This document shows, in pieces, positions 16,906-37,374 of a DNA stretch of 37,374 nucleotides. Numbering within the stretch: position 1 is the first letter of the stretch; each line of letters begins with the position of its first letter. Source of the DNA: Desulfobacterales bacterium (GTDB taxonomy: Bacteria > Desulfobacterota > Desulfobacteria > Desulfobacterales > SpSt-501); NCBI GenBank assembly GCA_025454255.1, contig JALOOU010000019.1, positions 1-37,374 of the forward strand. The letters run 5' to 3'. The notes beneath the pieces were generated by a model. That model was not told where the DNA came from and did no database searches. It saw only the letters and a program-made list of their open reading frames with translations. A program made the translations under genes and the position numbers.

Positions 16906-17068
16906 GGGCACACTCCTTTCTGCGAACGGGTGATGACTTCGAAAGAACCCGACCTTCTCGCCGCCGAGGGCGCTGTTCCCGCCACGCTCGCTGAGGTTCC
17001 GCCGCCGCGAAACGGGTGCACCGCGACACGCGCTGCAGCCGGACCGTGGGGTTGGGTCGTAGCGGCCT

Positions 17069-17087
17069 CCGCCGGAAGGTCCGGCGG
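17069..17087. other. GC hairpin in the divergent metY / 17209 region
   Basis: CCGCCGGA-AGG-TCCGGCGG is a perfect 8-bp stem with a 3-base loop, in the 303-bp region between the divergent genes at 16905 and 17209. No conserved riboswitch core was recognised around it. The rest of this region shows nothing else of note. Confidence 0.3.
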
Positions 17088-17208
17088 TTTGCGTTCCATC
17101 TTGAATGCATCGGCAGTGATGCTGTATGCTAAGACCGAACGGTCCGATCCACAAGCTTTTTTCTGGTTTCCGGCCTCGACGGTGTGCGGGCCAGATCGAT
17201 GGTGACCT

Positions 17209-19824
17209 ATGACGCTGCGGCTCTTCTCCTTCCTGAAACGCAAAAAAGGCCCCTCGCGCGAGGAGCTGATGCGCAGCTTCAAGGAGAAGTACGACAACTT
17301 CAAGCTGCTGCTCGAGTCCAACACCGAGCTTCTCAAGATCATCTCCGATATCGAACAGAAGCTGCGCGGAAAATCCGGATTCGGCCTGCCCTACATCGAA
17401 GCCCAGACCATGCGGGCCTTTTTCCACTGCGGCCGCATGATTCAGTGCCTGGAAAAAATGTCCGGCCGCCCCTATTCCCGCCTGAAAGAGGCCTTGGCCG
17501 ATATCCAGAATGCCATCAAAGGCGAGGCGCCGGCGGCCGCACGGAAGGCCTGCACCGAATACACTCTGGCCTACGCGGACATCGGACGGGAGAACGCCGA
17601 GGCGGTCGGCGAGAAAAACGCCAACTTGGCCGAGGTGGCGAACCGCATGGGGCTTCGGGTCCCGCGCGGTTTCGCCATCACCACGGCCGGCTTCGCGCGC
17701 TTTATGGACTTCAACCGGCTGACGGATGTGTTCCTGCGGCTCAAAGCCAAGGCCGACGTGATCGAGACCCAGACCATCCTGCAGGTGAGCGAACAGGCCC
17801 AGCTGTTGATCGCCGAGTCGGATGTGCCCGAGGACCTGGCGGACGCCATTCGCAGCGCCTATGACCGCATGCTGGCCGAGACCCCGGCCGCGGACCTCCC
17901 ATTGCATGTTGCCCTGCGCAGCAGCGCCATCGGCGAGGATAGCGTTCTCTCCTTCGCCGGCCAGTACCTCTCCGTCCTGAACGTCACCCTCGGGCGGCTG
18001 CTTGCGGAGTATAAGAACATTCTAGCCAGTCTTTTCACCCCGCGGGCCATCGCCTATCGGCTGCACATGGGGATCCCTTTTCCCGACGCCGCCATGGCCG
18101 TCGCCTGCCTGGAAATGGTGCGATCGAAGGTGAGCGGGGTCATGTACACACGCAACCCCATCAACCCCCTCGAGAACCGGATCATCATCAACGCCGTCTG
18201 GGGCTTGGGGCCGTACGCCGTGGACGGGATCGTACCGCCCGACAGCTATGTCTTCACCAAGGACCCCGACCTCGTGCTCGCCTCCACGCGCATCCAGGAG
18301 AAATCGGCCCGGCTCGTCGCCCTCGCCGACGGCAGCCTGGCAAAGGAGGATCTGCCGCCCGAGACCAGCCGAACGGCCTGCCTCAGTGAGGAGCAGGCGC
18401 AGGGACTCGCCCGGATGGGGCTGGCCCTCGAGGCCCATTTCGGCGCCCCGCAGGACATCGAATGGGCCATGGATGCGAAGGGGGAGTTCGTCATCCTGCA
18501 AACCCGGCCGCTCCAGATCGAGACCCGCGAGGCCGCCGAGCGCGCCGCCACCAGCGGCCCCCCGCCCGGCGCCGAGCTGCTTTTGGAAAACGCCGAGGTC
18601 GCCTGCGCCGGAAGCGGCTGCGGCCCGGTGATTGTGGTTCGCTCGGATTCCGATCTGGTCGACTTCCCGGACGGCGGGGTGCTGGTGGCGGTGCACCCCT
18701 CGCCGCAGTTCGTCATGGCGATGAGCAAGGCTCAAGCCATCATCACCGACTTCGGCAGCCTGGTGAGCCACATGGCCTCGCTCGCCCGCGAGTACATGGT
18801 CCCCACCCTGATGAACACCCGCTGCGCCACCACGCGGATCCCTGCGGGCACCGAGGTCACCGTGGATGCCTACACCGGGCGGGTCTACCGCGGGCGGGTG
18901 CCGGAGCTGCTGGAGGCCGGCCCCGCTGCGGGCGGCTTCGTGATCAAGGGCCCGACCTACATGGCCCTGCGGCGCCGGGCCGACCTCATCGTACCGCTGC
19001 ACCTGACCGACCCGAAGTCGCCGGAGTTCAGCGAAAAAAACTGTCGAACCCTTCACGACATCATGCGCTTCATCCACGAAAATTCCTATGCCATCGTGTT
19101 CCAGCTAGGCGATCTCGTCACCGACCGGGCCAGCATCTCCACCAAGCTCCTGGCACCGCTGCCGATCGACCTTTTCGTGATCGACATCCTGGGCGGTTTG
19201 AGCGTGGACGGGACCCGCGTGAGTTCCGTCAAACCCGAACAGGTGGTGTCGGTTCCCTTCAAAGCCCTGCTCCAAGGGATGCTGCGCGAGGATCTGGGCG
19301 CCCGGCAGCCGCGGCCGGTCAATCTGAGCGGATTTTTTTCAGTGATGTCCGAGCAGATGCTCTCTCCGGGCGGGGCCGGCAACGAGCGCTTCGGGGACCG
19401 CAGCTACGCCATCATCTCCGACAAGTACCTCAACTTCAGCTCGCGGGTGGGCTACCATTACAGCGTGCTCGACTGCTACTGCGGCAAAACCCCCGCCAAG
19501 AACTACATCCACTTCCAGTTCAAGGGCGGGGCGGCCGACGAACTGCGGCGGGGGCGCCGGGCGCGGATGATTCAAAAAGCGCTGGCCTCACTGGGGTTTT
19601 TGGTCGAAACCACGGGCGACCGGGTTTCGGCGCGCATCGCCAAACAGGACGAATCCTTCATCCAGGAAAAGCTCGACCTGCTGGGCCGCCTGCTGATCTT
19701 CACCCGGCAGATGGACATGATGATGCACACGGAAGGCCACGTAGACCAGCTGACGGAGTGCTTTCTCAGCGGCAACTACAGCCTCGACCCCTGCCGAATG
19801 AACCCGCCGCCCAGCGCTGCGTAG
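17209..19824 (+). CDS. PEP synthase / pyruvate phosphate dikinase-like protein with novel C-terminal domain
   Basis: An 871-residue protein. After a helical N-terminal segment (1-115) comes the PPDK/PEP-synthase ATP-binding domain (about 116-435): GEKNANLAEV, VPRGFAITTAGF, RSSAIGEDSVLSFAGQY, QDIEWAMDAKGEFVILQTRPLQ. The swivelling phosphohistidine domain follows (about 465-560), with the catalytic His521 in ITDFGSLVSHMASLARE. The PEP/pyruvate TIM barrel that should follow is absent. Instead there are about 300 residues I do not recognise, including DKYLNFSSRVGYHYSVLDCYCG and AKNYIHFQFKGGAADELRRGRRARMI. ATP-dependent phosphotransfer through His521 to an unknown acceptor is inferred. It has its own start after a GC-rich region divergent from metY. 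Confidence 0.85.
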   Translation: MTLRLFSFLKRKKGPSREELMRSFKEKYDNFKLLLESNTELLKIISDIEQKLRGKSGFGLPYIEAQTMRAFFHCGRMIQCLEKMSGRPYSRLKEALADIQNAIKGEAPAAARKACTEYTLAYADIGRENAEAVGEKNANLAEVANRMGLRVPRGFAITTAGFARFMDFNRLTDVFLRLKAKADVIETQTILQVSEQAQLLIAESDVPEDLADAIRSAYDRMLAETPAADLPLHVALRSSAIGEDSVLSFAGQYLSVLNVTLGRLLAEYKNILASLFTPRAIAYRLHMGIPFPDAAMAVACLEMVRSKVSGVMYTRNPINPLENRIIINAVWGLGPYAVDGIVPPDSYVFTKDPDLVLASTRIQEKSARLVALADGSLAKEDLPPETSRTACLSEEQAQGLARMGLALEAHFGAPQDIEWAMDAKGEFVILQTRPLQIETREAAERAATSGPPPGAELLLENAEVACAGSGCGPVIVVRSDSDLVDFPDGGVLVAVHPSPQFVMAMSKAQAIITDFGSLVSHMASLAREYMVPTLMNTRCATTRIPAGTEVTVDAYTGRVYRGRVPELLEAGPAAGGFVIKGPTYMALRRRADLIVPLHLTDPKSPEFSEKNCRTLHDIMRFIHENSYAIVFQLGDLVTDRASISTKLLAPLPIDLFVIDILGGLSVDGTRVSSVKPEQVVSVPFKALLQGMLREDLGARQPRPVNLSGFFSVMSEQMLSPGGAGNERFGDRSYAIISDKYLNFSSRVGYHYSVLDCYCGKTPAKNYIHFQFKGGAADELRRGRRARMIQKALASLGFLVETTGDRVSARIAKQDESFIQEKLDLLGRLLIFTRQMDMMMHTEGHVDQLTECFLSGNYSLDPCRMNPPPSAA

Positions 19825-25503: not shown

Positions 25504-27183
25504 CTACCCCTTTTCCACCCGGATGAATCTCCGGCCGACCCAAGTTGCCGCGACCACCAGCGCGGTGGAGATAAAAATCATGATGATCCCGAGGGCCGAA
25601 AGCCTGCCCCAGAGGCCGTCCTCGGCAAACCGCAGGATCTGAACCGCGATGACCTCCGTCCCGGGCCGGGAGAGCACCACCGACAACGTCAGCTCGCGCA
25701 CGAACATGGTCGCCATCAGAATCCAGCCCGAGACGACCCCCGGCACCAGCAGGGGGATCACGATCCGCCACAGGGTATAGAGGGTGCCGGCGCCGCAGAC
25801 GCGCGAGGACTCCTCCAAGTGGCTGTGGATCTGCACAAACGCGCTGGTGAGCGGCCGGACCCCGTAGGGCAGGTAGGTGGCGATGTAGCCGATCAGCAGG
25901 GCCCAGAGGGTTGCGTAAAGCGGGGTCCGCACGAAAAACCACATGAACCCCACGCCGATCACGATCCCGGGAAACGAGAAGGAGAGAAAGCTCAGCGACT
26001 CCAGAAAACCCGAGGCCCGGGTGCGGACCTTGACGATGATGTAGGCGACGAAGACCGAGAGCACCACCCCCAGCGAGGCGCCGGCAACGCCCAGAAAAAG
26101 GCTGTTCTTCAAAGAGAGGAACGATACCGGGTCGCGGATCACCGCCTGCCAGTTCTTCCAGCTCATCAGGGAGAGCGCCTTGGCGCTCGGGACCATGGCG
26201 TAGGGCAGCAGGGAGACGTAGAACAGCACCGCCACCGGCAAAACGATCAGCACCAGGCAGAGAAGCCCCACGCAGCCGAACAGCGGCAGCCGCGCCCGTT
26301 TCAGATCGATCACCGCGGGGCGGTAGCCCCGGCTGGTGACGGTGACGAATTTTTCGCTCTCAGCGGTCAGGCGGCGGTAGATGACGATGAGCACGATGGA
26401 GGCGGACAGGGCGCTCATGCCCACCGCCGCCGCCTGTCCGTAATCGGCGGCAAACCCCGAGGCGATGATGCGGTAGATGTGGCTGGCGAGCACATAGATC
26501 CGCCCCGGCATGCCGAGCACCGCCGGGACCGCAAAGGAGGCCAGGCTGCGCACGATGACCAGGATGAAGGCCGCCAGAATGGCCGGCCGGAGCACCGGCA
26601 GGGTCACTTTCAGCAGCGTGCGCAGGTTGGAGGCCCCGCAGACCTTCGAGGACTCCTCCAACGAGACGTCGAAGGCGGACATGGCCGGCGCGATGATCAG
26701 GTAGGCGATCGGCAGGTCCAGCAGCCCCTCCACCAGGATCATTCCCGGCATCGAGTAGATGTTGAAGGCCGCCCCCGACAGGCCGAACTCGCGCAGGAGC
26801 AGGTTGAAGAGGCCGTTGGAGGGGTTGAGCAGCAGCGCCCAGCTGACGCAAAAGAGGATGTGGGGGATCATCATCGGAATGATCGAGATGGTTTGGAACA
26901 GGGATTTGAAGGGGATGTTGGTGCGCAGGTTCAGGTAGGACAAAAACAGGGCCAGGGCGGTGGCGACGAGAGCGGAGCCCGCCGTGAAGACGACGGTGTT
27001 GACGATGATGCCGGCGAGCGCCGGGTCGGTGTAGGACTGGATGTACTTCGCGAGCGTGAAGCTGCCGAAGGCCTCCAGCCCGGTTGAAAAGCTGCCGAAG
27101 ACCAGCATGAAGACCGGGCAGACCGTCAGAAAGGCGACCAGGGCGATCAGGGCCCAGGTCAGGCCCGCCAGCGGTTTGGCCAT
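25504..27183 (-). CDS. fused two-domain ABC permease, Fe3+/polyamine type
   Basis: A 559-residue membrane protein made of two tandem permease halves, each about six helices, as in FbpB-type iron and some spermidine or aminoethylphosphonate importers. Each half carries its own EAA-type coupling motif: LEESSKVCGASNLRTLLKVTLPVL and LEESSRVCGAGTLYTLWRIVIPLL. The likely start is 27183 (MAKPLAGLTW); an ATG at 27219 would overlap the ATPase gene. It is the third gene of a leftward operon (binding protein, ATPase, permease) and ends convergent to the sensor gene at 25491 with a gap of 12 bp. Confidence 0.9.
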   Translation of the reverse strand: MAKPLAGLTWALIALVAFLTVCPVFMLVFGSFSTGLEAFGSFTLAKYIQSYTDPALAGIIVNTVVFTAGSALVATALALFLSYLNLRTNIPFKSLFQTISIIPMMIPHILFCVSWALLLNPSNGLFNLLLREFGLSGAAFNIYSMPGMILVEGLLDLPIAYLIIAPAMSAFDVSLEESSKVCGASNLRTLLKVTLPVLRPAILAAFILVIVRSLASFAVPAVLGMPGRIYVLASHIYRIIASGFAADYGQAAAVGMSALSASIVLIVIYRRLTAESEKFVTVTSRGYRPAVIDLKRARLPLFGCVGLLCLVLIVLPVAVLFYVSLLPYAMVPSAKALSLMSWKNWQAVIRDPVSFLSLKNSLFLGVAGASLGVVLSVFVAYIIVKVRTRASGFLESLSFLSFSFPGIVIGVGFMWFFVRTPLYATLWALLIGYIATYLPYGVRPLTSAFVQIHSHLEESSRVCGAGTLYTLWRIVIPLLVPGVVSGWILMATMFVRELTLSVVLSRPGTEVIAVQILRFAEDGLWGRLSALGIIMIFISTALVVAATWVGRRFIRVEKG

Positions 27184-27197
27184 GCTCCGGGGCCGGA

Positions 27198-28286
27198 TCA
27201 GTGGGCGAGCGCGAAACAATGCTCCGGCTCCACGGCGAAGTCGACCTCCGCGCCCTCGGCCAGCGCTGCGGCGGGGTCGATCCGGGCGATCAGACGGCTA
27301 TCCCCCACGCGCAGTTCACCCTCGTAGGCCTCGCCCACGAACACCAGCGACTCCAGCCGGCCGCGAAAAACGTTCCGGCCGCCCGCACCGCCGGATGCCG
27401 GCACCCGGATGAACTCCGGCCGGATGCAGACCGCCACCGCACTGCCGGCGGCCAGCTGCGGCCGCTGCTGGCAGGCGAGCGGGCCGATGGCGGAATCGAC
27501 CAGCGTGTGGGAGGGCCCGTGGGAGTGCACCCGGCCCTCGACCAGGTTGGCGCGGCCGATGAAATCGGCAACGAAGCGGTGGTCGGAGTCGAAGTAGATC
27601 TTGCGGGGGTCGCCGATCGCGACGATGCGCCCGTCTCTCATCACCGCGATGGAGTCCGAAAGGCAGAGCGCTTCGACCCGGTCGTGGGTGACGTAGACCG
27701 CCGTGATCTTGAGCTCGCTCAGGAAGCGCCGCAGCTCCTTGCGGGTCTCCTCGCGCAGTTTGGCATCCAGGTTGCTCAAGGGTTCGTCGAAGAGGATCAC
27801 CTTGGGCTCGGCCACCAGGGCCCGCGCGAGCGCCACGCGCTGCTGCTGGCCGCCGGAGAGCTTCGTCGCCGGGCGGTTTTCGAAACCCTCGAGCTGCACC
27901 CGCTCGAGCGTGCGGGCCACCATGCGGCGGATCTCCTCGCGCGGCCTTTTGCGGGCCTGCAGCGGGTAGGCCACGTTTTCAAACACCGTCATGTGCGGCC
28001 AGATGGCATAGGTCTGGAACACCATGCCGAGCCCGCGCTTTTCGGGCGGAACGAACACCCCCCGCTCCCGTGACCAGACCACCTCGCCGCCGATGGCGAT
28101 CTCGCCCGCATCGGGGGACTCCAGGCCGACGATGCAGCGCAGCAGGGTGGTCTTGCCGCAGCCGCTGGGGCCGAGCAGTGTGAAGATGTGGTCGGCCGGG
28201 ATGGTCAGGTCGACATCCGCCAGGGCGTGGATGCGCTTGCCCGCGGAGGTGAAGTCCTTGCTGAGATGGCTGAGACGAATCTCCAT
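27198..28286 (-). CDS. ABC transporter ATPase, PotA/FbpC type
   Basis: A 362-residue nucleotide-binding subunit. It has Walker A GPSGCGKTT, Q-loop VFQTYAIWPH, signature LSGGQQQRVALARAL, Walker B VILFDEPLSNLDAKL and H-loop VTHDRVEA, all intact, followed by a C-terminal TOBE-like regulatory domain (about 245-362). This is the normal architecture for importers of iron, polyamines, thiamine or aminoethylphosphonate. It lies between the binding protein and the fused permease, forming a complete operon. The substrate cannot be read from the ATPase. Confidence 0.93.
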   Translation of the reverse strand: MEIRLSHLSKDFTSAGKRIHALADVDLTIPADHIFTLLGPSGCGKTTLLRCIVGLESPDAGEIAIGGEVVWSRERGVFVPPEKRGLGMVFQTYAIWPHMTVFENVAYPLQARKRPREEIRRMVARTLERVQLEGFENRPATKLSGGQQQRVALARALVAEPKVILFDEPLSNLDAKLREETRKELRRFLSELKITAVYVTHDRVEALCLSDSIAVMRDGRIVAIGDPRKIYFDSDHRFVADFIGRANLVEGRVHSHGPSHTLVDSAIGPLACQQRPQLAAGSAVAVCIRPEFIRVPASGGAGGRNVFRGRLESLVFVGEAYEGELRVGDSRLIARIDPAAALAEGAEVDFAVEPEHCFALAH

Positions 28287-28367
28287 GGCATCGGTCCGTG
28301 CCGACCCCGGGGCGGGAATCCCTCCCCAGGGTCGTGGAAGCTGCGACGGCAGACGAAGCGAAGCCGG

Positions 28368-29366
28368 TTACGGCATGGCGAAGATCTTTTTGAACTCACC
28401 CCCCCAGCGGCGGATCTCCTCATCCGAAAGCTCCCGGATCGGCTCCACCCGGGCCGTCTCCATGCCGTCGATGGGCGGAAACACCCCCGGAGCCAGGACG
28501 TACTCCCCCACCTTTTCGGCCATGATCTTCATGGCATCCCTGGAGAGCCAGTAGTCGATGAAAAGCTTCGCCGCGTTCGGGCGCGGGGCGGCCGCGGCGA
28601 GCGCCATCGCCCGCGGGCTTCCCAGCATCGGCTGCTTGAGCCGGGCCCAGTCGAGCGGCGCGGGGGCCTTGGTGATGATGTATTTGGGCATGGAGATGGC
28701 GATCAGCTTCTCGCCGCTTTCGACCGGCGCAGGCGTGGGCCCGAAGGAGTTCACGAACATGGGCTGGTTGGCGGCCAGCCCCTTGACGAATTTCAGCCAG
28801 GCCTCCTCGGAGGTGAACACCTTCTCCTTCAGGCCGATGAGCCATGAGATGGTGGTGGCGTGGGTGGAGGGATCGGCCATGACGATCTTGCCGCGCCACT
28901 TGGGGTCGGCCAGGTCCTCGTAGAGCGCGGGAGCATCCCCGGGCTTGACCAGCTCCTTGTTGTAAATGTAGGCGACGTATTCGATCCCGAACTGCTGGAT
29001 CCGTTCGTCCTGGCCGGCCCAGGCCGGGTAGCCGGCCATGGCGGGCGGGCGGTAGGCGGCCAGAACGCCCTTCTCCTTCAATATCTCCAGGATCGGCAGG
29101 GGCGCCTGCAGGACGTCCGCCATGAGCTTGCCGGCCTGGTGCTCGGTCAGCACCGTGGCGACGAACTTGTTGGTGGAGACCCGCGTGTACTCGGCGCTGA
29201 CGCCATAGGTTTTCGCGAACGCCTCCAGGATGGGCTCGACGGCCGTGATGTTGGCGTAGAAGGCCGCCTTTTTCTCGGCCTTGGCTTTTTCGACCAGAGC
29301 GGGGTCCGCCGCGGCCGCGACGGACGCCGTCAACGCGATGACCAGAAGCGCGGCCAGTCTCTTCAT
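28368..29366 (-). CDS. periplasmic binding protein of the Fe3+/polyamine-type importer
   Basis: A 332-residue solute-binding protein (family 1). It has a signal peptide MKRLAALLVIALTASVAAAA, likely cleaved after AAA, then KAKAEKKAAFYANITAVEPILEAFAKTYGVSAEYTRVSTNKFVATVLTEH, which is FbpA-like. Later LADPKWRGKIVMADPSTHATTISW matches the hinge region of this family. Conserved iron-binding tyrosines are not obvious, so an organic or anionic ligand is equally possible. The start at 29366 has AGGTGA. First gene of the operon. Confidence 0.9.
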   Translation of the reverse strand: MKRLAALLVIALTASVAAAADPALVEKAKAEKKAAFYANITAVEPILEAFAKTYGVSAEYTRVSTNKFVATVLTEHQAGKLMADVLQAPLPILEILKEKGVLAAYRPPAMAGYPAWAGQDERIQQFGIEYVAYIYNKELVKPGDAPALYEDLADPKWRGKIVMADPSTHATTISWLIGLKEKVFTSEEAWLKFVKGLAANQPMFVNSFGPTPAPVESGEKLIAISMPKYIITKAPAPLDWARLKQPMLGSPRAMALAAAAPRPNAAKLFIDYWLSRDAMKIMAEKVGEYVLAPGVFPPIDGMETARVEPIRELSDEEIRRWGGEFKKIFAMP

Positions 29367-29485
29367 CGGTTCACCTCCGTTGGGGTTGTAGAAAAACGGG
29401 TTAGGGCGCAAGGCCTGCCCGGTGGTACCGAACATTGCAGGGAATTGTCAATGCCGGTTCGCCCGGTCACGCTGCACGAAAACCC

Positions 29486-29843: not shown

Positions 29844-30599
29844 ATGATTCAGCGGCAACGGCAAACCAGGAATGTAAAAAAAGTCAAACCGATTCCTCGG
29901 TATTACCGGCTGCAAGACATCATCCTACGCAATATCGAGCGTGGCAGCCTGAGTCCCGGAAGCTCAATACCGCCTGAACGCAGGTTGGCTGAATCTTATA
30001 GCGTAAGCATCGGCACAGCCAAAAAGGCCATCTTAAATTTAGTTAATGAGGGATACCTCTACCGCATCCAAGGCAAGGGAACCTTTGTCGCGGGAACGAC
30101 TCTCCGAAGAGATAGCCTTCGGTATTACCGGTTTCTCGGCAAATTCGAAGACAAAGAGAAGGATTTGTCCGTTCATCTCGCCGGCATACGCAAAATTTCC
30201 TCGTTAAATACGGTCAATTCCTATTTGCGGATAAGGCCCACACAAAAGCTTTTTGAACTGAAACGGATTTTTTTTTCAAAAGAAACCCCAGTAGTATTCG
30301 TCGTCAGCTACCTTCCTGTGATACTTTTTCCTGGTATCGACGCAATACCGGTATCCCACTTCGAGCAGAAAACTCTATACGGGACCATCGAGGAAAAGTT
30401 CGGACTCCCGACCATCTACAACCAAGAATTGATCGGCGCGCGCTTTCCCTCTGCAGAAGCGGCCCGGCTTCTGAAGATTGGAAAGAAGCACCCGATTCTT
30501 TTCATCGAAATGCTGGCCTTCACCTACAGAAATCGTCCTTATGAGTATCGGCGGGCTTATTGCCTTACTGATTCACAGAAGATATTCAGGCATTATTGA
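29844..30599 (+). CDS. GntR/HutC-family transcriptional regulator
   Basis: A 251-residue regulator. The N-terminal winged helix (about 20-88) reads YYRLQDIILRNIERGSLSPGSSIPPERRLAESYSVSIGTAKKAILNLVNEGYLYRIQGKGTFVA, typical of GntR. The C-terminal part (about 95-251) is a UTRA ligand-binding domain of the HutC type: FELKRIFFSKETPVVFVVSYLPV and SAEAARLLKIGKKHPILFIEMLAFTYRNRPYEYRRAYC. It is the first gene of the AT-rich island and is followed 82 bp later by the aminotransferase. An effector related to the transported substrate is likely. The start has a weak ribosome binding site. Confidence 0.9.
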   Translation: MIQRQRQTRNVKKVKPIPRYYRLQDIILRNIERGSLSPGSSIPPERRLAESYSVSIGTAKKAILNLVNEGYLYRIQGKGTFVAGTTLRRDSLRYYRFLGKFEDKEKDLSVHLAGIRKISSLNTVNSYLRIRPTQKLFELKRIFFSKETPVVFVVSYLPVILFPGIDAIPVSHFEQKTLYGTIEEKFGLPTIYNQELIGARFPSAEAARLLKIGKKHPILFIEMLAFTYRNRPYEYRRAYCLTDSQKIFRHY

Positions 30600-30647: not shown

Positions 30648-30681
30648 CGACTATCATCTTTCCCCAAAAAGGAGGTCACTC

Positions 30682-32040
30682 ATGTCAAAAACACAACCGC
30701 TTGATCCCGAAACCATAATCAAATACGAAACCGACCACGTTCTATACCCCTGGACCCATCAGAAAGGGTTGAAACCCTTTGTGGCGGAAAAAGGAAAAGG
30801 CAACTACATCTATGGAGCTGACGGTAGAAAATACCTCGATTTTTCGGCCCAGTTCGTTTTTTCTAATTTGGGGCACTCGGACGACCGGGTGGTAAAAGCG
30901 ATCGCCGACCAAGCCGCGAAATTGCCGTCGGTTAACTCTCAATGGGCAACAGAGCCCAAGGCACGCTTGGGTAAACTCTTATCTGATATCACGCCGGGGG
31001 ATTTAACCAAAAGCTTCTTCTCCACCGGTGGGACGGAAGCCAACGAGGGTGCCATGAAAATCGCACGGCTCGTTACTGGAAAACAAAAAATTATTTCACG
31101 CTACCGCGCCTACCACGGTTCCACATACGGTTCCATGTCGATGTCGGCCGAATTTCGCAACTGGGCTTATGAACCGGCGGTGCCGGGGGTCCTCCACTGC
31201 CTGGAACCATACTGCTATCGCTGCCCGTTCGGTGCCACTTACCCCGCGTGCGACCTTCGCTGCGCACAGCATGTCGAAGATGTGATATGTCGCGAGGGAG
31301 GTGCTAGACGGGTAGCCGCCTTCATCGCTGAACCTATCATGGGCCCCGGCGGCATCATCGTCCCCCCTGACGGCTACTGGCAGCGCGTGCGCGAAATCTG
31401 CACCAAACACGAAATCATACTGATCGCCGACGAAGTCATGACGGGTTTCGGCCGAACGGGTAAATGGTTTGGGGTCGAGCACTGGAACGTAGTCCCCGAT
31501 GTGTTAACAACCGCAAAGGGAATTACTAGCGGCTACATGCCGCTCGGCGCAACATGCGTGCGCAAATGGGTAGCTGACAAATTTGAGGAAATTCCCTACC
31601 TGCACGGCCATACCTATTCCGGCCACACCTTAGCCATGGCGGCCGCCGTGGCCACCATAGATGCATATCGCCAGGACGACCTCATCAACAATTCGGCCAA
31701 AATGGGGGAGTACCTTAAGGTGAAAATGCATGAGCTGCAGGACAAGCACCCCTCAGTCGGGGAAGTTCGTGGCAAGGGGTTGTTTTGCGGCATGGAGCTG
31801 GTCAAGAGCCGCAAAACGCGGGAGCCAAGTCACGAGGCTTTGATGGAGCCGCCTCGGCCAGTTTCCACGAAGATGAAGATTATCGGCAAGATGATGCAAG
31901 AAGGTGTGTATATACTGGCCGGCGCGGCCAGCGTCCTAATGCTCACGCCGCCCCTCTCAATAACCAAGGATGAGATCGACCATGCTATGTCAGTGGTTGA
32001 CAAGGCGCTCGAAATTTCAGACGCCGAATACAAAGATTGA
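30682..32040 (+). CDS. class III aminotransferase, taurine:pyruvate aminotransferase-like
   Basis: A 452-residue PLP omega-aminotransferase. Family marks are FFSTGGTEANEGAMKIARLVTG, YRAYHGSTYGSMSMS, the PLP aspartate in LIADEVMTGFGRTGKWFGVEHW, and the PLP lysine in LTTAKGITSGYMPLGA. The N-terminus (LDPETIIKYETDHVLYPWTHQKG) and the segment EPYCYRCPFGATYPACDLRC resemble taurine:pyruvate aminotransferase (Tpa), which makes sulfoacetaldehyde and alanine from taurine and pyruvate. A NitT/TauT-type importer directly downstream supports an amino-sulfonate substrate, but other amines (beta-alanine, diamines) are possible. The start follows a strong AAGGAGG. GC is lower than in the flanking genes. Confidence 0.82.
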   Translation: MSKTQPLDPETIIKYETDHVLYPWTHQKGLKPFVAEKGKGNYIYGADGRKYLDFSAQFVFSNLGHSDDRVVKAIADQAAKLPSVNSQWATEPKARLGKLLSDITPGDLTKSFFSTGGTEANEGAMKIARLVTGKQKIISRYRAYHGSTYGSMSMSAEFRNWAYEPAVPGVLHCLEPYCYRCPFGATYPACDLRCAQHVEDVICREGGARRVAAFIAEPIMGPGGIIVPPDGYWQRVREICTKHEIILIADEVMTGFGRTGKWFGVEHWNVVPDVLTTAKGITSGYMPLGATCVRKWVADKFEEIPYLHGHTYSGHTLAMAAAVATIDAYRQDDLINNSAKMGEYLKVKMHELQDKHPSVGEVRGKGLFCGMELVKSRKTREPSHEALMEPPRPVSTKMKIIGKMMQEGVYILAGAASVLMLTPPLSITKDEIDHAMSVVDKALEISDAEYKD

Positions 32041-32101: not shown

Positions 32102-32857
32102 GTGAACAAGGGTTTAACTGACGAAATCAAAGTTGAAGTCATCGGATTGACCAAAAAGTTCGGTGAGCTTTTAGTGTTGGACGATGTCAATTTTACGGTC
32201 AGGAAGGGAGAGTTCCTGGCGATTGTGGGGCCCACCGGTTGTGGCAAAACTACATTTCTAAACCTCCTGTCTCGTCTCATTCCAGCTACCAGAGGCCAAA
32301 TCCGCATCGACGGCCAGGAGGCGGATCCAAAAAAACACAACATCGCCTTTGTCTTTCAAGAACCGTCTTCACTCCCCTGGCTCACCGTTAAACAGAACGT
32401 GGAATTCGGCATGCTTATCAAGGGAGTCCGAGCGGACGAACGGGAACACCGGCTCACACGTATTATCGATCTCGTGGGATTGACCGATTGCGCCGAACTT
32501 TTTCCGAACCAAATATCTGCCAGTATGGAGCAGCGTGTCGCTGTCTCACGCGCGTTTGCCACCAGCCCGGATTTACTGCTCATGGACGAGCCTTACGGGC
32601 AACTTGATATCAAGCTGCGTTATTACCTGGAAGACGAACTGGTCAAGCTATGGCGAGAAACCGGATCAACGGTGATTTTTGTTACCCACAACATCGAGGA
32701 AGCCGTCTATGTGGCCGAGCGCATTCTGGTCCTTACCAACAAACCCACGACCATTAAAGCCGAGATCCAGGTGGATTTGCCACGGCCAAGAAACTTCATC
32801 GATGAAAGCTTCATTGAAATACGCAAACAGGTAACCGATCTAATTCGCTGGTGGTGA
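32102..32857 (+). CDS. NitT/TauT-type ABC ATPase with degenerate signature
   Basis: A 251-residue nucleotide-binding subunit of the SsuB/TauB type. Walker A GPTGCGKTT, Q-loop VFQEPSSLPW, Walker B LLLMDEPYGQLD and H-loop VTHNIEEA are intact. The ABC signature, normally LSGG(M/Q)xQR, is ISASMEQR, so both glycines are lost. By the standard arrangement its Walker A pairs with the partner's signature. The second ATPase at 35728 has an intact signature but lost its H-loop histidine, which makes a complementary pair. Starts with GTG at 32102, 61 bp after the aminotransferase. Needed for import driven by the neighbouring permeases. Confidence 0.9.
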   Translation: MNKGLTDEIKVEVIGLTKKFGELLVLDDVNFTVRKGEFLAIVGPTGCGKTTFLNLLSRLIPATRGQIRIDGQEADPKKHNIAFVFQEPSSLPWLTVKQNVEFGMLIKGVRADEREHRLTRIIDLVGLTDCAELFPNQISASMEQRVAVSRAFATSPDLLLMDEPYGQLDIKLRYYLEDELVKLWRETGSTVIFVTHNIEEAVYVAERILVLTNKPTTIKAEIQVDLPRPRNFIDESFIEIRKQVTDLIRWW

Positions 32858-32946
32858 ACTAAAGGTTCGTTTCGCATGCGCCGGGGCCACGAAACGAGCC
32901 TGAAAAGGCAACGCGCCGGCAACCATCAAACCAATGGAGGTGAATT

Positions 32947-34008
32947 ATGTGTCGCAGCTCAGCAAAATTGGTCATTGTGATCGTAGGATTGATGCTTCTG
33001 CTACCAGGGACCCTGATGGCACAAGGCCCGATCAAGCTTAAAGTGAGCCACCAGCCGGAATTCGAGTCATTTCTAACCTGGCAAGCGATCCAGGATGGAA
33101 CCCAGAAGAAATACAACCTCGACATGAAACTGGTCTATTTTGACTCCGGGATGCCGCAGGTGGAGGCTCTTCCGGCAAAACAGTGGGATGTCGGGGCTAC
33201 CGGGGCGGTGCCGATGACAATGGCCGCCCTCCGCTACCAGGCCTATATGATCGGCATGACTCACGACGACGGGTTCAACAACTTCGTGCTGGTGCGGCCA
33301 AACAGCGACGTTCTGAAAGTGAAGGGACACAACCCCAAATACCCCAATATGTATGGATCACCCGAAACGGTAAAAGGCAAAACCATACTGACAAGCACCG
33401 TTTCCTCCGGACACTATGTCTTGAGCACTTGGTTGAAACGCCTCGGGCTCTCCGATGCCGATGTGAAGATTCTGAATATGGAACAGGGGCAGGCCGTGGC
33501 CGCTTTCGAATCCGGCCAGGGCGACATTGTTTCGCTTTGGGCCCCTTTCACCATGACGGGGCTGAGCAAAGGCTGGAAAAAAGTGGCAAATGGCGAAGAC
33601 TGTGACGGTTCTGTCCCCCTGGCGCTCATCACAAGCAAGGAGTTCGGGGATAAGAACCCCCAGCAGGTTGCCACGTTTTTGAAAATGTATATGGACCAGG
33701 TAACCCGACAGAAGAAGGAAACTGTTCAGCAGGCCGCCCAGTACCAGAAATTCCTCAAAGAATGGGCCGGTATGGAACTAAGCCTCGATATGTGCAAGAT
33801 GGATATCGAATTACATCCGATGTACGACCTTAAGAAAAATCTTGAGCTATTCGACTCATCCAAAGGCAAGAGCCAAGCCCAGTCCTGGATGGACAACCTT
33901 TCCCAGTTTTTCACGGACAACAAGCGATTTACTTCCCAAGAGCGCGAAAAGGTTATGAACACACCCTTTATCACCGATAAGTTCCTCAAGATCGCTGCAG
34001 GCATGTAG
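32947..34008 (+). CDS. NitT/TauT-type periplasmic binding protein
   Basis: A 353-residue solute-binding protein of the NMT1/SsuA/TauA class. The signal peptide is KLVIVIVGLMLLLPGTLMAQG, with likely cleavage after LMA. The mature protein has KLKVSHQPEFESFLTWQAIQDG, QWDVGATGAVPMTMAAL, KGKTILTSTVSSGHYVLSTWLKRLGLSDADVKILNMEQGQAVAAFESGQGDIVSLWAPF, the usual order for this fold. It lies between the two halves of the transporter genes and has an excellent ribosome binding site (GGAGGTGA). Taurine, alkanesulfonate or another small amine/acid are candidate ligands; the gene order with a Tpa-like enzyme favours taurine. Confidence 0.88.
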   Translation: MCRSSAKLVIVIVGLMLLLPGTLMAQGPIKLKVSHQPEFESFLTWQAIQDGTQKKYNLDMKLVYFDSGMPQVEALPAKQWDVGATGAVPMTMAALRYQAYMIGMTHDDGFNNFVLVRPNSDVLKVKGHNPKYPNMYGSPETVKGKTILTSTVSSGHYVLSTWLKRLGLSDADVKILNMEQGQAVAAFESGQGDIVSLWAPFTMTGLSKGWKKVANGEDCDGSVPLALITSKEFGDKNPQQVATFLKMYMDQVTRQKKETVQQAAQYQKFLKEWAGMELSLDMCKMDIELHPMYDLKKNLELFDSSKGKSQAQSWMDNLSQFFTDNKRFTSQEREKVMNTPFITDKFLKIAAGM

Positions 34009-34073
34009 CGGCAAACTGAAGGCCTGGCGGCGGATGCCAAGGACCGTCGCCAGGCAATTTCACAGGTGACCCC

Positions 34074-34880
34074 ATGAATTCAGAGACAAAGCTCAAGGAC
34101 CCCTTGAGCCTAAAAATCGCCCCCTGGGTCAGCGTTATCGGTTTCTTTGTCGTTTGGCAGCTATTAATCGACACTGAGATTGTACCCCGAATACTACTCG
34201 CGTCACCGGTGGAAGTGGGAAAGCTTCTCATCGACAAGCTGACCAACCCCGACCCCGACGGCGCGGTGCTCATGACCCACACTATAATCAGCCTGATAGA
34301 GGCCCTTCTCGGATATATTCTGGCACTTATTACCGGGATTCCCTTGGGGCTGTTGATGGGGTGGTTCGTGGTCGCTGAGGGACTCGCCCGGCCCCCGTTT
34401 GAAATGATCCGTCCCATCCCACCGGTAGCCTGGATCCCTCTGGCAATCTTCTGGTTCGGGATCGGGATAACAGGCAAAGTTTTCATCATCTGGGCGTGCG
34501 CCGTGGTCCCTTGCGTGATCAATGCCTACACGGGGGTGCGTATGGCCAACCCCACCCTCATCCAGATGGCCAGAACCTATGGCGCATCCGATTGGCAGAT
34601 CTTCACTAAAATCTGTATACCGTCAGCGCTGCCAATGGTGTTTGGGGGCCTGCAGATTGCACTGGCACTGGCCTGGACCACTCTGGTAGCGGCGGAATTG
34701 ATCGCCGCCGATGCGGGCCTTGGCTATCTCATTACAATGGGCCGCAGGTTGTTGCGTCCGGACATGATCGTCTTGGGTATGATCATGGTCGGGTTGACCG
34801 GTTGGTTCATCGGCAACATCATCGATCGGATCGAGCGAAGGCTTACCGCCGGTCTCGAAAGAGGAGGTGCTGCGACGTGA
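34074..34880 (+). CDS. NitT/TauT-type ABC permease, first of two
   Basis: A 268-residue membrane protein with about six helices of the SsuC/TauC family. The coupling motif is visible as ARTYGASDWQIFTKICIPSALPMVFGGLQIALALAWTTLVAAELIA. Helix starts are at about residues 17, 76, 108, 134, 195 and 227. AGGTGA precedes the start. Its stop overlaps the GTG start of the second permease (GTGA). Two different permeases in one importer of this family would form a heterodimeric pore. Confidence 0.9.
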   Translation: MNSETKLKDPLSLKIAPWVSVIGFFVVWQLLIDTEIVPRILLASPVEVGKLLIDKLTNPDPDGAVLMTHTIISLIEALLGYILALITGIPLGLLMGWFVVAEGLARPPFEMIRPIPPVAWIPLAIFWFGIGITGKVFIIWACAVVPCVINAYTGVRMANPTLIQMARTYGASDWQIFTKICIPSALPMVFGGLQIALALAWTTLVAAELIAADAGLGYLITMGRRLLRPDMIVLGMIMVGLTGWFIGNIIDRIERRLTAGLERGGAAT

Positions 34881-35731
34881 AAACCACTATGGGACACACT
34901 GTCTCGGTCCACGCCGCATCCCATGGAAATGGAAAAGGCACGGCGGCACATATAGGGAAAGTGGTCAAGAATAGATACGTCCTTTATTTTGTCTCCATAG
35001 TCAGTCTTTTGGTTATCTGGCATTTTTCGGCGGTCATCGGTGAATCTTCCAAGTACATGCCCACACCGGCGATGGTCCTGACCGAACTCTGGCGCATTGC
35101 TCATGAAAACCTCGCAGGCAAAAACCTGTTGGGCCATTTGTGGTCAAGCATGCACCGGGTGCTGATCGGGTTTGCCATCGGTTCATTAGTCGGTGTCCCA
35201 CTGGGTCTCTTCATGGCACTTAATCGTTATCTCAACGCCTTGGTGAAACCTATTTTCGACCTGTTCAAACCCATGCCTCCCATTTCATGGATTTCCCTCG
35301 CCATCCTGTGGTTCGGGATTGGGGAGGAGTCCAAGGTTTTCATCATCGCCATCGGCGCTTTTGTCCCGGCTTTGATCAATTCCTACAACGGCATCCGTCT
35401 GGTGGACCCGGCTCTCTATGACGCCATTCGCATGCTAGGCGCAAACCGCTGGCAGACGATGATTGAGGTGACATTCCCCGCCGGATTCCCAGCTCTCTTT
35501 GCAGGGCTGCAGATCGCACTCAGCGTTGCCTGGAGCTGTGTACTGGCAGCGGAGCTTGTCAGCGCCAGATCAGGGATGGGGTTTCTCATAATTTTGGGGA
35601 TGACCATGTCCAATCCTGCCATGATTCTTAGCGGCATGGTGGTGATTGCGATTACGGCCTATCTGATCACCGTGGTTTTGAGCAATGTGGAGAAATGGGT
35701 ATGCCCCTGGAAAGTCGAGTTGCCGCAATGA
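34877..35731 (+). CDS. NitT/TauT-type ABC permease, second of two
   Basis: A 284-residue permease paralogous to the one just upstream. The coupling motif is AIRMLGANRWQTMIEVTFPAGFPALFAGLQIALSVAWSCVLAAELVS; the periplasmic-side segment IFDLFKPMPPISWISLAILWFGIGEESKVFI matches RPIPPVAWIPLAIFWFGIGITGKVFI of the partner, showing a shared ancestry. GTG 34877 is chosen because it overlaps the first permease stop and has GAGGAGG about 9 bases upstream. The longer open frame further upstream is out of keeping with the overlap. The N-terminus is longer and more basic than in the partner. Its stop overlaps the next ATG (ATGA). Confidence 0.9.
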   Translation: MKTTMGHTVSVHAASHGNGKGTAAHIGKVVKNRYVLYFVSIVSLLVIWHFSAVIGESSKYMPTPAMVLTELWRIAHENLAGKNLLGHLWSSMHRVLIGFAIGSLVGVPLGLFMALNRYLNALVKPIFDLFKPMPPISWISLAILWFGIGEESKVFIIAIGAFVPALINSYNGIRLVDPALYDAIRMLGANRWQTMIEVTFPAGFPALFAGLQIALSVAWSCVLAAELVSARSGMGFLIILGMTMSNPAMILSGMVVIAITAYLITVVLSNVEKWVCPWKVELPQ

Positions 35732-36498
35732 CGGATCAAACGACAAAAATAGAATGTCAGAATCTCTCCAAGATCTTTAAGCAGCGCAGCGGCAAGGTTC
35801 AAATACCGGTTTTGGAAAGCATCAGTCTTTCGGTGGTTGAAAATGAGTTCCTGGTGATTGTCGGTCCTGGACAGTGTGGAAAAACCACCCTGCTGCGAAT
35901 TATTGCCGGATTAGAAACTCCCACTACTGGTAAAGTTTTTCTTGATGGTAAAGAGGTCACAGGCCCTGGGCCCGACCGGGGAATGGTTTTTCAAAAATAC
36001 ACCTTGTTTCCCTGGAAAACCGTCATGGGAAACGTCGAGATGGGCCTGAAGATTGGGGGAATGTCTAAAAGACAGCGCCGAGAGGTTGCCAGTCATTATA
36101 TTAACCTTGTCGGCTTGCAAGGCTTTGAAAAGGCCTATCCCCATCAGCTAAGCGGCGGTATGAAGCAACGTGTGGGAATTGCTCGGGCCTATGCAAATAA
36201 TCCCAAGGTCCTGCTTTTGGATGAACCTTTCGGTCAGCTTGATGCCCAGACTCGCTATCTCATGGAGCAGGAAACCGCCCGCATTTGGTCGGTGGAAAAA
36301 AAAACCGTCATCTTTGTCACCAATAGCATCGAAGAGGCAGTATATCTTGCCGACCGCATTGTCACGCTGGAGGGTAAGCTCCCCGGCCGGCTGAAGTCCA
36401 CCTATGTCGTCAACTTGCCGCGCCCACGCGAACACATTGATAAGGAATTTCTGGAAATGCGGCACACGATCACTAAGGAAACAGAGCTTCTGCTCTGA
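35728..36498 (+). CDS. NitT/TauT-type ABC ATPase lacking the H-loop histidine
   Basis: A 256-residue nucleotide-binding subunit, paralogous to the one at 32102. Walker A GPGQCGKTT, Q-loop VFQKYTLFPW, signature LSGGMKQRVGIARAY and Walker B VLLLDEPFGQLD are intact. The H-loop reads VTNSIEEA, with Asn in place of the conserved His of VTHxIEEA. That residue is required for ATP hydrolysis in known ABC proteins. Together with the first ATPase this predicts one consensus site and one degenerate site in a heterodimer. The ATG at 35728 overlaps the permease stop; an ATG at 35695 is also possible. Last gene of the transporter operon. Confidence 0.9.
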   Translation: MTDQTTKIECQNLSKIFKQRSGKVQIPVLESISLSVVENEFLVIVGPGQCGKTTLLRIIAGLETPTTGKVFLDGKEVTGPGPDRGMVFQKYTLFPWKTVMGNVEMGLKIGGMSKRQRREVASHYINLVGLQGFEKAYPHQLSGGMKQRVGIARAYANNPKVLLLDEPFGQLDAQTRYLMEQETARIWSVEKKTVIFVTNSIEEAVYLADRIVTLEGKLPGRLKSTYVVNLPRPREHIDKEFLEMRHTITKETELLL

Positions 36499-36874: not shown

Positions 36875-37374
36875 ATGGCTATCAAATCCTTTGAAACAGT
36901 GAGAAGAACCGTTTTCGGCTACGGCGCCGTGGAAAACCTCCCCGAGGAGATCCAGCGGGTGAAGGGCGCCCGGGTGCTGGTGGTGACCGACCCCGGGATC
37001 AAGGCGGCCGGGGTGCTGGAACAAGTCACCCGCGTCCTCGCCGCGGCCAAAACCGAATTCAGCGTTTTTGCAGACGTCGAGCCCGACCCCAAGGTGGAGG
37101 TGGCTCTGGCGGCTGCCGAGGCCGCCAAGGCCTACCGCCCGGACGTCATCGTGGGACTGGGCGGCGGCAGCTCGCTCGACATCTCCAAGGTGGCCTCGGT
37201 GCTGTTGACCAACGCCGATCCGGTCGACAACTACTTCGGCATGGAGAGGGTGCCGCAACCGGGGGTGCCGCTGGTCCTCATCCCCACCACGGCCGGCACC
37301 GGCAGCGAGATGACCTCCATCTGCGTGCTCTCGGACACGAAAAACAACGTCAAGAAGGGCATCGTCAGCGAGCA
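36875..37374 (+). CDS. iron-containing alcohol dehydrogenase, N-terminal part
   Basis: The first 166 codons of a group III (iron-dependent) alcohol dehydrogenase; it continues past the window end. Seen are FGYGAVENLPEEI, VLVVTDPGIKAAGVLEQV, the NAD-binding GLGGGSSLDISKVAS and LIPTTAGTGSEMT. The iron ligands (Asp, three His) lie mostly beyond the end. AGAGGA precedes the ATG at 36875. Codon use is GC-rich like the backbone, unlike the transporter genes just upstream. Members of this family include sulfoacetaldehyde reductase (SarD) of taurine-degrading bacteria as well as 1,3-propanediol, butanol and lactaldehyde dehydrogenases, so the substrate is open. Confidence 0.9.
   Translation, partial: MAIKSFETVRRTVFGYGAVENLPEEIQRVKGARVLVVTDPGIKAAGVLEQVTRVLAAAKTEFSVFADVEPDPKVEVALAAAEAAKAYRPDVIVGLGGGSSLDISKVASVLLTNADPVDNYFGMERVPQPGVPLVLIPTTAGTGSEMTSICVLSDTKNNVKKGIVSE

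What the first reader, a model, noticed from the sequence alone, without database searches (positions are those of the whole stretch)
32102..36498. NitT/TauT importer with two permeases and two ATPases that have complementary defects
Seen: the ATPase at 32102 has ISASMEQR for its ABC signature but a normal H-loop (VTHNIEEA); the ATPase at 35728 has a normal LSGGMKQR but VTNSIEEA for its H-loop. Known: in ABC dimers each ATP site is built from Walker A, Walker B and H-loop of one subunit and the signature of the other. Inference: the pair gives one full site (Walker and H-loop of the first, signature of the second) and one site broken on both sides. The complementary pattern, with two different permeases, points to an obligate heterodimer, whereas SsuBC/TauBC systems are normally homodimeric. 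I know of no described importer of this family built this way.
Basis: partly seen in the sequence, partly recalled or inferred. Interest (0 to 1): 0.78.

Follow-up and report, generated by a model that had tools for sequence, protein, structure and literature searches.

The report
Importer with one crippled ATP site
Some sulfate-reducing and gut bacteria carry a family of nutrient importers, probably for sulfonates such as taurine in part of the family, whose two different motor proteins would fit together into one complete and one crippled ATP site, an asymmetry familiar from exporters but unusual in this kind of importer.

Summary
ATPase A1 (32102) has ISASM for LSGGQ; A2 (35728) has Asn for the H-loop His and, unnoticed before, GPGQCGK in Walker A. 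All three defects fall in one composite ATP site; the other is intact. In 41 of 41 loci carrying both ATPases (Desulfobacterota, Clostridia, one Spirochaetales) the polarity is the same. Of 101 comparison ATPases, 99 are canonical; two have one altered signature Gly, and none lacks the His. Walker A Lys and Walker B Glu are kept in every A1 and A2, so the weak site probably still binds ATP. Best reading: an obligate heterodimer with one hydrolytic and one degenerate site, in a TauABC-like importer. The binding protein resembles TauA, and taurine-pathway genes flank part of the family. Dimer, site functions and cargo are inferred. A1 and main A2 are sister groups; two basal loci are partly degenerate, but whether their A2 shares one origin with the others is unresolved. 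One decayed operon keeps A2 alone. New variant of a known kind: degenerate-site heterodimers are classic in exporters and occur in RbsA-type fused importers; my literature searches found no NitT/TauT example.

The parts
32102..32857 (+). ATPase A1: degenerate ABC signature (ISASMEQR), canonical Walker A, Walker B and H-loop
   Evidence: ABC_tran 107.8 bits; conserved in 44 family members
32947..34008 (+). Periplasmic substrate-binding protein, TauA/SsuA-like
   Evidence: Pfam NMT1_2, OpuAC, NMT1; NCBIfam SsuA_fam 95.8 bits, below its cut-off; nearest solved relatives TauA and SsuA by sequence and by predicted fold
34074..34880 (+). Permease P1
   Evidence: BPD_transp_1
34877..35731 (+). Permease P2, overlaps P1 by 4 bases
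   Evidence: BPD_transp_1; start and stop printed
35728..36498 (+). ATPase A2: canonical signature (LSGGMKQR), H-loop His replaced (VTNS), degenerate Walker A (GPGQCGKTT); overlaps P2 by 4 bases
   Evidence: conserved in 43 family members
30679..32040 (+). Class III aminotransferase directly upstream; possibly a taurine or other sulfonate transaminase
   Evidence: Aminotran_3; nearest solved relative taurine:2-oxoglutarate aminotransferase 6jix, 307 bits; a class III aminotransferase lies near 21 of 46 loci
29844..30599 (+). GntR/UTRA regulator, probable local regulator
36875..37372 (+). Iron-containing alcohol dehydrogenase, SarD-like (sulfoacetaldehyde reductase), cut by the contig end
   Evidence: NF050025 189.9 bits over positions 4-165 of 385, best model but under its cut-off of 700; Fe-ADH

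Best explanation
This is a TauABC-like (NitT/TauT-type) ABC importer, here SBP + P1 + P2 + A1 + A2, in which A1 and A2 form an obligate heterodimer. Site 1 (Walker A, Walker B, H-loop of A1 with the LSGGM of A2) is complete and hydrolyses ATP. Site 2 (Walker A and H-loop of A2 with the xS[A/S]SM of A1) is degenerate: it keeps the Lys, Asp and Glu, so it probably binds ATP and helps hold the dimer together, but turns over slowly or not at all. Each A1/A1 or A2/A2 homodimer would have two defective sites, so only the mixed dimer should work well. The two ATPases of the main family come from a gene duplication. The likely cargo, for the window-like members, is taurine or a related C2 sulfonate. 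Shown: motifs, gene order, co-conservation, relatedness. Inferred: the dimer, the function of each site, the cargo.
For: Polarity is the same in 41 of 41 loci with both genes and the intact site shows no change at the checked positions. A1, n=44: signature position 3 never Gly (A38 S4 V1 T1), position 4 Ser 42, Gly 2; His 44/44; Walker B Glu 44/44. A2, n=43: H-loop Asn 42, Ser 1, never His; Walker A position 4 Gln 40, Leu 1, Gly 2; signature SGG 43/43; Walker A Lys 43/43; Walker B Asp-Glu 43/43. Comparison genes: 99 of 101 canonical, His in 101 of 101. A1 forms one group and A1+A2 one group against comparison ATPases (0.99 and 0.93; 98 and 92 in an IQ-TREE run on 92 thinned rows). Co-occurrence: all 13 order-level genomes with A1 have A2 and 14 of 15 phylum-level ones (the miss is 80% complete and its locus is a 4.36 kb contig). 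H-loop mutants of HisP and MalK keep under 2% ATPase (PMC6222333, passages). Cargo: TauA/SsuA are the nearest solved binding proteins; near 46 loci an aminotransferase lies by 21, alanine dehydrogenase by 6, sulfoacetaldehyde acetyltransferase (Xsc) by 5, SarD-like by 5.
Against: No experiment or dimer model was made. The catalytic Glu is retained in A2, and Pdr5 keeps ATPase activity without its H-loop His (PMC6222333), so site 2 may still hydrolyse. L025 and L026 show that one signature Gly can be replaced in single-ATPase loci, so the SAGM of the basal A1 need not be disabling. Genome G132 (L229) keeps a full A2 without a full A1; a 28-residue A1 piece and P1/P2 pieces remain, so it looks like a decayed operon. 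In the trees the two basal A2 group with A1 (support 1.0; 100), not with the other A2, so a single origin of the A2 defect is not shown; one A2 clade is not rejected either (p-AU 0.256). Many loci are from related species, so 41 is not 41 independent events. 20 of 46 loci had none of the sought taurine or aldehyde enzymes nearby, among them all Clostridia and Spirochaetales loci. The own genome's two PFL-like enzymes resemble hydroxyproline dehydratase, not isethionate lyase.
Confidence: 0.8

Rival explanations
1. The heterodimer is real but both sites hydrolyse ATP; the substitutions are tolerated and the asymmetry only tunes rates.
For: Walker A Lys, Walker B Asp-Glu and Q-loop Gln are kept in all A1 and A2 rows; a hallmark of degenerate sites in exporters is loss of the catalytic Glu (PMC7544095 abstract), not seen here; Pdr5 keeps ATPase activity without its H-loop His; single signature-Gly changes occur in two single-ATPase loci.
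Against: Three separate elements of the same site are altered in 39 of 41 loci, two on A2 and one on A1; HisP and MalK lose over 98% of activity with H-loop changes.
Confidence: 0.2
2. A1 and A2 belong to two alternative homodimeric transporters sharing the operon, as in ordinary SsuBC/TauBC systems.
For: Related ATPases in these genomes lie alone beside a permease and are canonical.
Against: Each homodimer would have both sites defective, in signature (A1) or in His and Walker A (A2); the pair is found together in 41 loci and in nearly all genomes that have either.
Confidence: 0.04
3. The defects are sequence errors or gene decay.
For: The window is from a fragmented assembly of 87.3% completeness.
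Against: The same substitutions recur across phyla in open frames with otherwise conserved motifs.
Confidence: 0.01

Closest known systems
TauABC / SsuABC (NitT/TauT sulfonate importers)
   Same: TauA/SsuA are the nearest solved binding proteins; TauB, TauC and SsuC models are among the best for the ATPases and permeases
   Different: Two distinct permeases in most loci and two distinct, complementary ATPases; all these models score below their cut-offs
SaoA / SaoP (NCBIfam transporter models)
   Same: Best NCBIfam model for both ATPases (216.7 and 246.5 bits) and both permeases (159.8 and 161.3 bits)
   Different: Well below the cut-offs of 360 and 295 bits, so not members of those equivalogs; I did not examine Sao loci
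NrtBCD and CmpBCD (cyanobacterial nitrate and bicarbonate importers)
   Same: Closest solved ATPases by sequence to both A1 and A2, deposited as separate C and D chains
   Different: CmpD, NrtC and CmpC show SGG and His in the printed alignments (NrtD was listed but not printed); NrtC/CmpC chains are 665-690 residues, A1 and A2 are 251 and 256
Degenerate-site ABC exporters (TM287/288, BmrCD, TAP, MRP1, ABCB11; also CFTR)
   Same: One consensus and one degenerate composite site, with deviations spread over both NBDs (PMC7756269, passages)
   Different: Exporters (CFTR a channel); lack of the catalytic Glu is called a hallmark of their degenerate site (PMC7544095 abstract), whereas here the Glu is kept
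RbsA and NupO, fused-NBD importers of B. subtilis
   Same: Importers with one degenerate ATP site (PMC11466899, passages)
   Different: Two NBDs fused in one chain, classed there as type II importers, second Walker A Lys lost; here separate subunits and Lys kept

Membership tests
NitT/TauT-type ABC importer | NMT1/OpuAC-type substrate-binding protein | tested here: met
   Pfam NMT1_2, OpuAC and NMT1 above their cut-offs
NitT/TauT-type ABC importer | BPD_transp_1 permease(s) and ABC_tran ATPase(s) in one operon | tested here: met
   gene order
TauB/TauC/SsuA/ntrCD/SaoA/SaoP as named by NCBIfam | Score above the curated cut-off | tested here: not met
   A2 vs SaoA 246.5 of 360, TauB 234.3 of 357, ntrCD 215.6 of 291.8; A1 vs SaoA 216.7 of 360, TauB 189.5 of 357; P2 vs SaoP 161.3 of 295, TauC 160.6 of 342; SBP vs SsuA_fam 95.8 of 163.5
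Homodimeric SsuBC/TauBC | Single ATPase with all motifs intact | tested here: not met
   Two ATPases with complementary defects
Heterodimeric ABC transporter with a degenerate site (functional class) | Deviations on both NBDs fall in one composite site, the other site intact | tested here: met
   41 of 41 loci at the checked positions
Heterodimeric ABC transporter with a degenerate site (functional class) | Loss of the catalytic Walker B Glu in the degenerate site | tested here: not met
   Glu present in 43 of 43 A2
Heterodimeric ABC transporter with a degenerate site (functional class) | Physical heterodimer and unequal hydrolysis | not testable with these tools
   needs biochemistry or structure
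Taurine importer | Taurine binding by the SBP | tested here: inconclusive
   Nearest fold TauA, 19% identity; pathway enzymes near only part of the family

The most novel reading that the evidence does not exclude
A family of binding-protein-dependent importers that works with one hydrolytic ATP site while a second, Glu-retaining site stays ATP-loaded as a latch, so that import could cost about one ATP per molecule instead of two. Such a saving would suit energy-limited anaerobes living on sulfonates. If the two basal A2 are really an offshoot of A1, as the free tree places them, the same complementary decay would even have happened twice.
Probability: 0.35. Interest if true: 0.8.

Novelty: new variant of a known kind. 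Interest (0 to 1): 0.62.

Why it matters
Whether binding-protein-dependent importers need two working ATP sites per cycle is a question that, to my knowledge (recalled), has mostly been approached with engineered mutants. Here is a natural, widely inherited case, with partly degenerate basal members, in a family whose homodimeric relatives (Tau, Ssu) and two-ATPase relatives (Nrt, Cmp) are characterised or solved. It gives a ready system for asking what the second site does, and a motif marker (paired SASM / TN) for importers that, in part of the family, lie next to taurine-degradation genes in Desulfobacterota.

Tried and rejected
Sequence error or decay: rejected by orthologues. Chance in a large family: against it stand 101 distinct comparison ATPases (69, 26, 6 new), 99 of them canonical. 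The two exceptions, L025 (LSTGM) and L026 (LSVGM), were followed up: their contigs show one ATPase and one permease matching ours, so no second complementary pair was found there. Fusion of A1 with A2 as a sign of the dimer: none was recognised in the gene maps, without a dedicated test; other fusions were seen (see Noticed in passing). Isethionate lyase in the own genome: not recognised. SarD over its cut-off in the own genome: none. More intermediates: a search with the basal A2 (9 of 395 genomes matched) gave only the two known basal loci, and the other seven genomes matched through A1 proteins. Plasmid records: 386 matches at E <= 1e-50, all under 60% identity. Mirror-tree correlations among the five proteins, 34 loci, are 0.91-0.95 for all pairs, so they do not single out A1-A2. 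The permease tree (38 P1, 38 P2, 30 comparison rows, every second one held) gives P2 as one group (0.96); P1 of the two basal loci falls outside and P1+P2 sisterhood is weak (0.65). A stepwise order of ATPase decay before permease duplication was considered and is not claimed, because a fully degenerate pair (L100) also has a single permease and the basal A2 are of uncertain place. Dimer modelling was not run: the predictor takes single chains.

Literature: ten searches in the held open-access library, of which listings and abstract openings were seen; passages were read in PMC7756269, PMC11466899, PMC12136057, PMC10507020, PMC6906117, PMC7544095 and PMC6222333, no paper in full. None of what I saw described a NitT/TauT importer with complementary ATPase defects. 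Only some of the searches were aimed at that question; others were about Dpp, taurine and Nrt/Cmp. The one with 'NitT TauT' as a term (35) returned no paper. Most subscription journals are not held.

One A1 row (L053) has unknown letters in Walker A. For the IQ-TREE run, 16 A1/A2 rows of near relatives and half of the comparison rows were left out (92 rows).
Full report
What is there. The five genes lie as reported on the + strand: ATPase A1 32102-32857, binding protein 32947-34008, permeases P1 34074-34880 and P2 34877-35731, ATPase A2 35728-36498; P1/P2 and P2/A2 overlap by 4 bases. A GntR/UTRA regulator (29844-30599) and a class III aminotransferase (30679-32040) precede them; a SarD-like iron alcohol dehydrogenase begins at 36875 and runs off the contig. 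Motifs read directly: A1 GPTGCGKTT, ISASMEQR, MDEP, VTHN; A2 GPGQCGKTT, LSGGMKQR, LDEP, VTNS.

How far it is conserved. A1 relatives at E <= 1e-75 were found in 15 of 389 genomes of the class search and 15 of 395 of the phylum search, and 13 of 194 order genomes hold one at that level; these samples overlap. In one search the A1 relatives end at 2.8e-105 (64% identity); then come two A2 partners of the family (6e-63 and 2.5e-62) and, from 8e-60 and at most 43% identity, other ATPases mixed with further A2. Loci were fetched, and named relatives came from one scan of genome contigs: Deltaproteobacteria, Clostridia (labelled Fournierella, Merdimonas, Mediterraneibacter, Oscillibacter, [Clostridium] symbiosum, Avilachnospira) and one Spirochaetales bacterium, nearly all MAGs. 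After removing duplicates, 44 loci hold A1, 43 hold A2 and 41 hold both, the window included. In 41 of 41 the intact site shows no change at the checked positions, while A1 lacks the signature GG and A2 lacks the H-loop His; in 39 of 41 the A2 Walker A is also changed at position 4, the exceptions being L089 and L090.

Loci with one of the two. L076, L081 and L095 (A1 only) and L230 (A2 only) are cut by contig ends; L076 and L230 are from one genome. L229 (genome G132) has a full A2; a 28-residue A1 piece and pieces of P1 and P2 lie beside it, and no SBP match was found, so I read it as a decayed operon.

Permeases and binding protein. Both permeases are found in 37 of 41 loci (in L053 and L054 as split matches, in L087 with P1 in the open frame of A1); L089, L090 and L100 show a single permease and L056 is cut by its contig end. 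L087 lacks an SBP match; L089 and L090 have an NMT1-type protein instead; L100 has only a weak SBP match, in one open frame with the permease.

Column counts. A1, n=44: signature third position A38 S4 V1 T1, fourth S42 G2; His, Walker B Glu and Walker A Lys 44 of 44. A2, n=43: H-loop N42 S1; Walker A fourth position Q40 L1 G2; signature SGG and Walker A Lys 43 of 43; Walker B Asp-Glu 43 of 43. The weak site is altered in a fixed way rather than decayed freely: the replacing residues are themselves conserved and the ATP-binding residues are kept. The D-loop has Gln, where relatives mostly have Ala (recalled), in 44 of 44 A1; A2 has Q28 A9 H6.

Controls. 69 comparison ATPases from loci L105-L172 all have SGG and His, as do 26 further ATPases at 46-55% identity to A2 (loci L187-L196, L200, L201, L214-L225, L227, L228). 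Of 13 second-tier ATPases (L025-L037), seven are the same genes as; of the six new ones four are canonical and two, L025 and L026, have one signature Gly replaced (LSTGM, LSVGM) with Walker A and His intact. Their contigs show no second ATPase and one permease matching ours. So 99 of 101 are canonical, none has both signature Gly replaced, none lacks the His and none has the Walker A change. The two exceptions mean that a single signature change is not by itself a sign of a heterodimer. The nearest solved ATPases, CmpC/CmpD and NrtC/NrtD, are separate chains of one transporter; the printed alignments of CmpD, NrtC and CmpC show canonical signature and His.

Origin. In a FastTree of 44 A1, 43 A2 and 41 comparison sequences (every second of 81), A1 is one group (0.99), A1+A2 one group (0.93) and 41 of 43 A2 one group (0.96); the two basal A2 (L089, L090) join A1 (1.0). 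An IQ-TREE run on 92 thinned rows agrees: A1 98, main A2 100, A1+A2 92, and A1 with the basal A2 100. Holding all A2 together is not rejected (p-AU 0.256). The search with a basal A2 also found A1 proteins of other genomes sooner than their A2. So the main A1/A2 pair descends from one duplication, but the basal pair may share it or may be a second, convergent case. The basal ATPases are partly degenerate: A1 SAGM, A2 ITNN with a normal Walker A.

How it most likely works. [quoted passage not shown] The pair therefore gives one full and one degenerate site, and neither homodimer has a full site. H-loop substitutions in the importer ATPases HisP and MalK leave under 2% activity; MsbA keeps 8% and Pdr5 keeps ATPase activity (PMC6222333, passages). 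I expect hydrolysis at site 1 and slow or no hydrolysis at site 2, with ATP still bound there. The retained Glu sets it apart from typical degenerate sites (PMC7544095, abstract and passages) and leaves room for the rival that both sites hydrolyse.

Cargo. The SBP model (mean pLDDT 92.9, 28-row alignment) matches TauA (6ssy, E 6.4e-19, TM by target 0.84, 19% identity) and SsuA best, as does the sequence profile. The window's aminotransferase is closest to taurine:2-oxoglutarate aminotransferase among solved chains. Near 46 loci (BLAST, E <= 1e-20) class III aminotransferases lie by 21, aldehyde dehydrogenases by 15, alanine dehydrogenase by 6, Xsc by 5, SarD-like enzymes by 5 and glutamate dehydrogenase by 4; 20 loci had none of these. 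Some rows are weak: two alanine dehydrogenases at 32%, one Xsc at 41%, two aldehyde dehydrogenases at 28 and 34%. The aminotransferases differ widely (31-69% to the window's), and the one of L045 is closest to other solved enzymes. One Xsc and one alanine dehydrogenase passed their curated cut-offs (1022 of 620 and 527 of 392 bits). Tpa-Ald-Xsc and Tpa-SarD-IslAB are described taurine pathways of taurine-respiring Desulfobacterota, and in Taurinivorans muris import was assigned to TRAP transporters (PMC10507020, passages). None of the sought enzymes lay near the Clostridia, Spirochaetales or basal loci, so the cargo there is open.

Novelty. Degenerate-site heterodimers are well known among exporters, and RbsA/NupO show that fused importers can have them (PMC11466899, passages). 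My searches showed no NitT/TauT importer built this way, in a library that lacks most subscription journals. I rate it a new variant of a known kind.

Noticed in passing
G000:C69:17352-18882 (loci L002, L003, L056): The same genome has a second, adjacent A2-A1 pair of the family (62% and 64% identity) with the defects, cut by the contig end; genome G153 holds three complete systems (L041, L048, L055).
   Followed up: partly
L087:8051-9451: A1 (short of its last residues) and P1 lie in one open frame, with no SBP match between them: an ATPase-permease fusion or an assembly join; P2 is in two pieces.
   Followed up: partly
L100:3069-4745: A weak SBP match and a single permease share one 559-residue open frame next to a fully degenerate A2-A1 pair.
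   Followed up: partly
L025 and L026 (L247:8036-8743, L248:2655-3374): Two single-ATPase NitT-like loci with one signature Gly replaced (LSTGM, LSVGM) but intact His and Walker A.
   Followed up: partly
L090:3970-11283: A basal system sits beside uroporphyrinogen-decarboxylase-like and B12-binding proteins and a homocysteine-biosynthesis-like protein, suggesting another cargo.
   Followed up: partly
L099:4938-8288, L102:4485-6602: In two gut Clostridia loci the pair is followed by a sulfatase and a sensor histidine kinase (Pfam on L099; L102 by cluster).
   Followed up: partly
L229:9420-13516: Decayed operon: full A2, pieces of P2, P1 and A1, next to aminotransferase, Xsc and alanine dehydrogenase matches.
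   Followed up: partly
window 25504-29435, - strand: A second, unrelated ABC importer (SBP, ATPase with TOBE_2 domain, permease with two BPD_transp_1 stretches) lies upstream.
   Followed up: no
window 15592-17907 - and 17209-19824 +: A Cys/Met-metabolism PLP enzyme ORF with about 340 residues before its domain overlaps a PPDK_N/PEP-utilizers ORF on the other strand; one start is probably misplaced.
   Followed up: no
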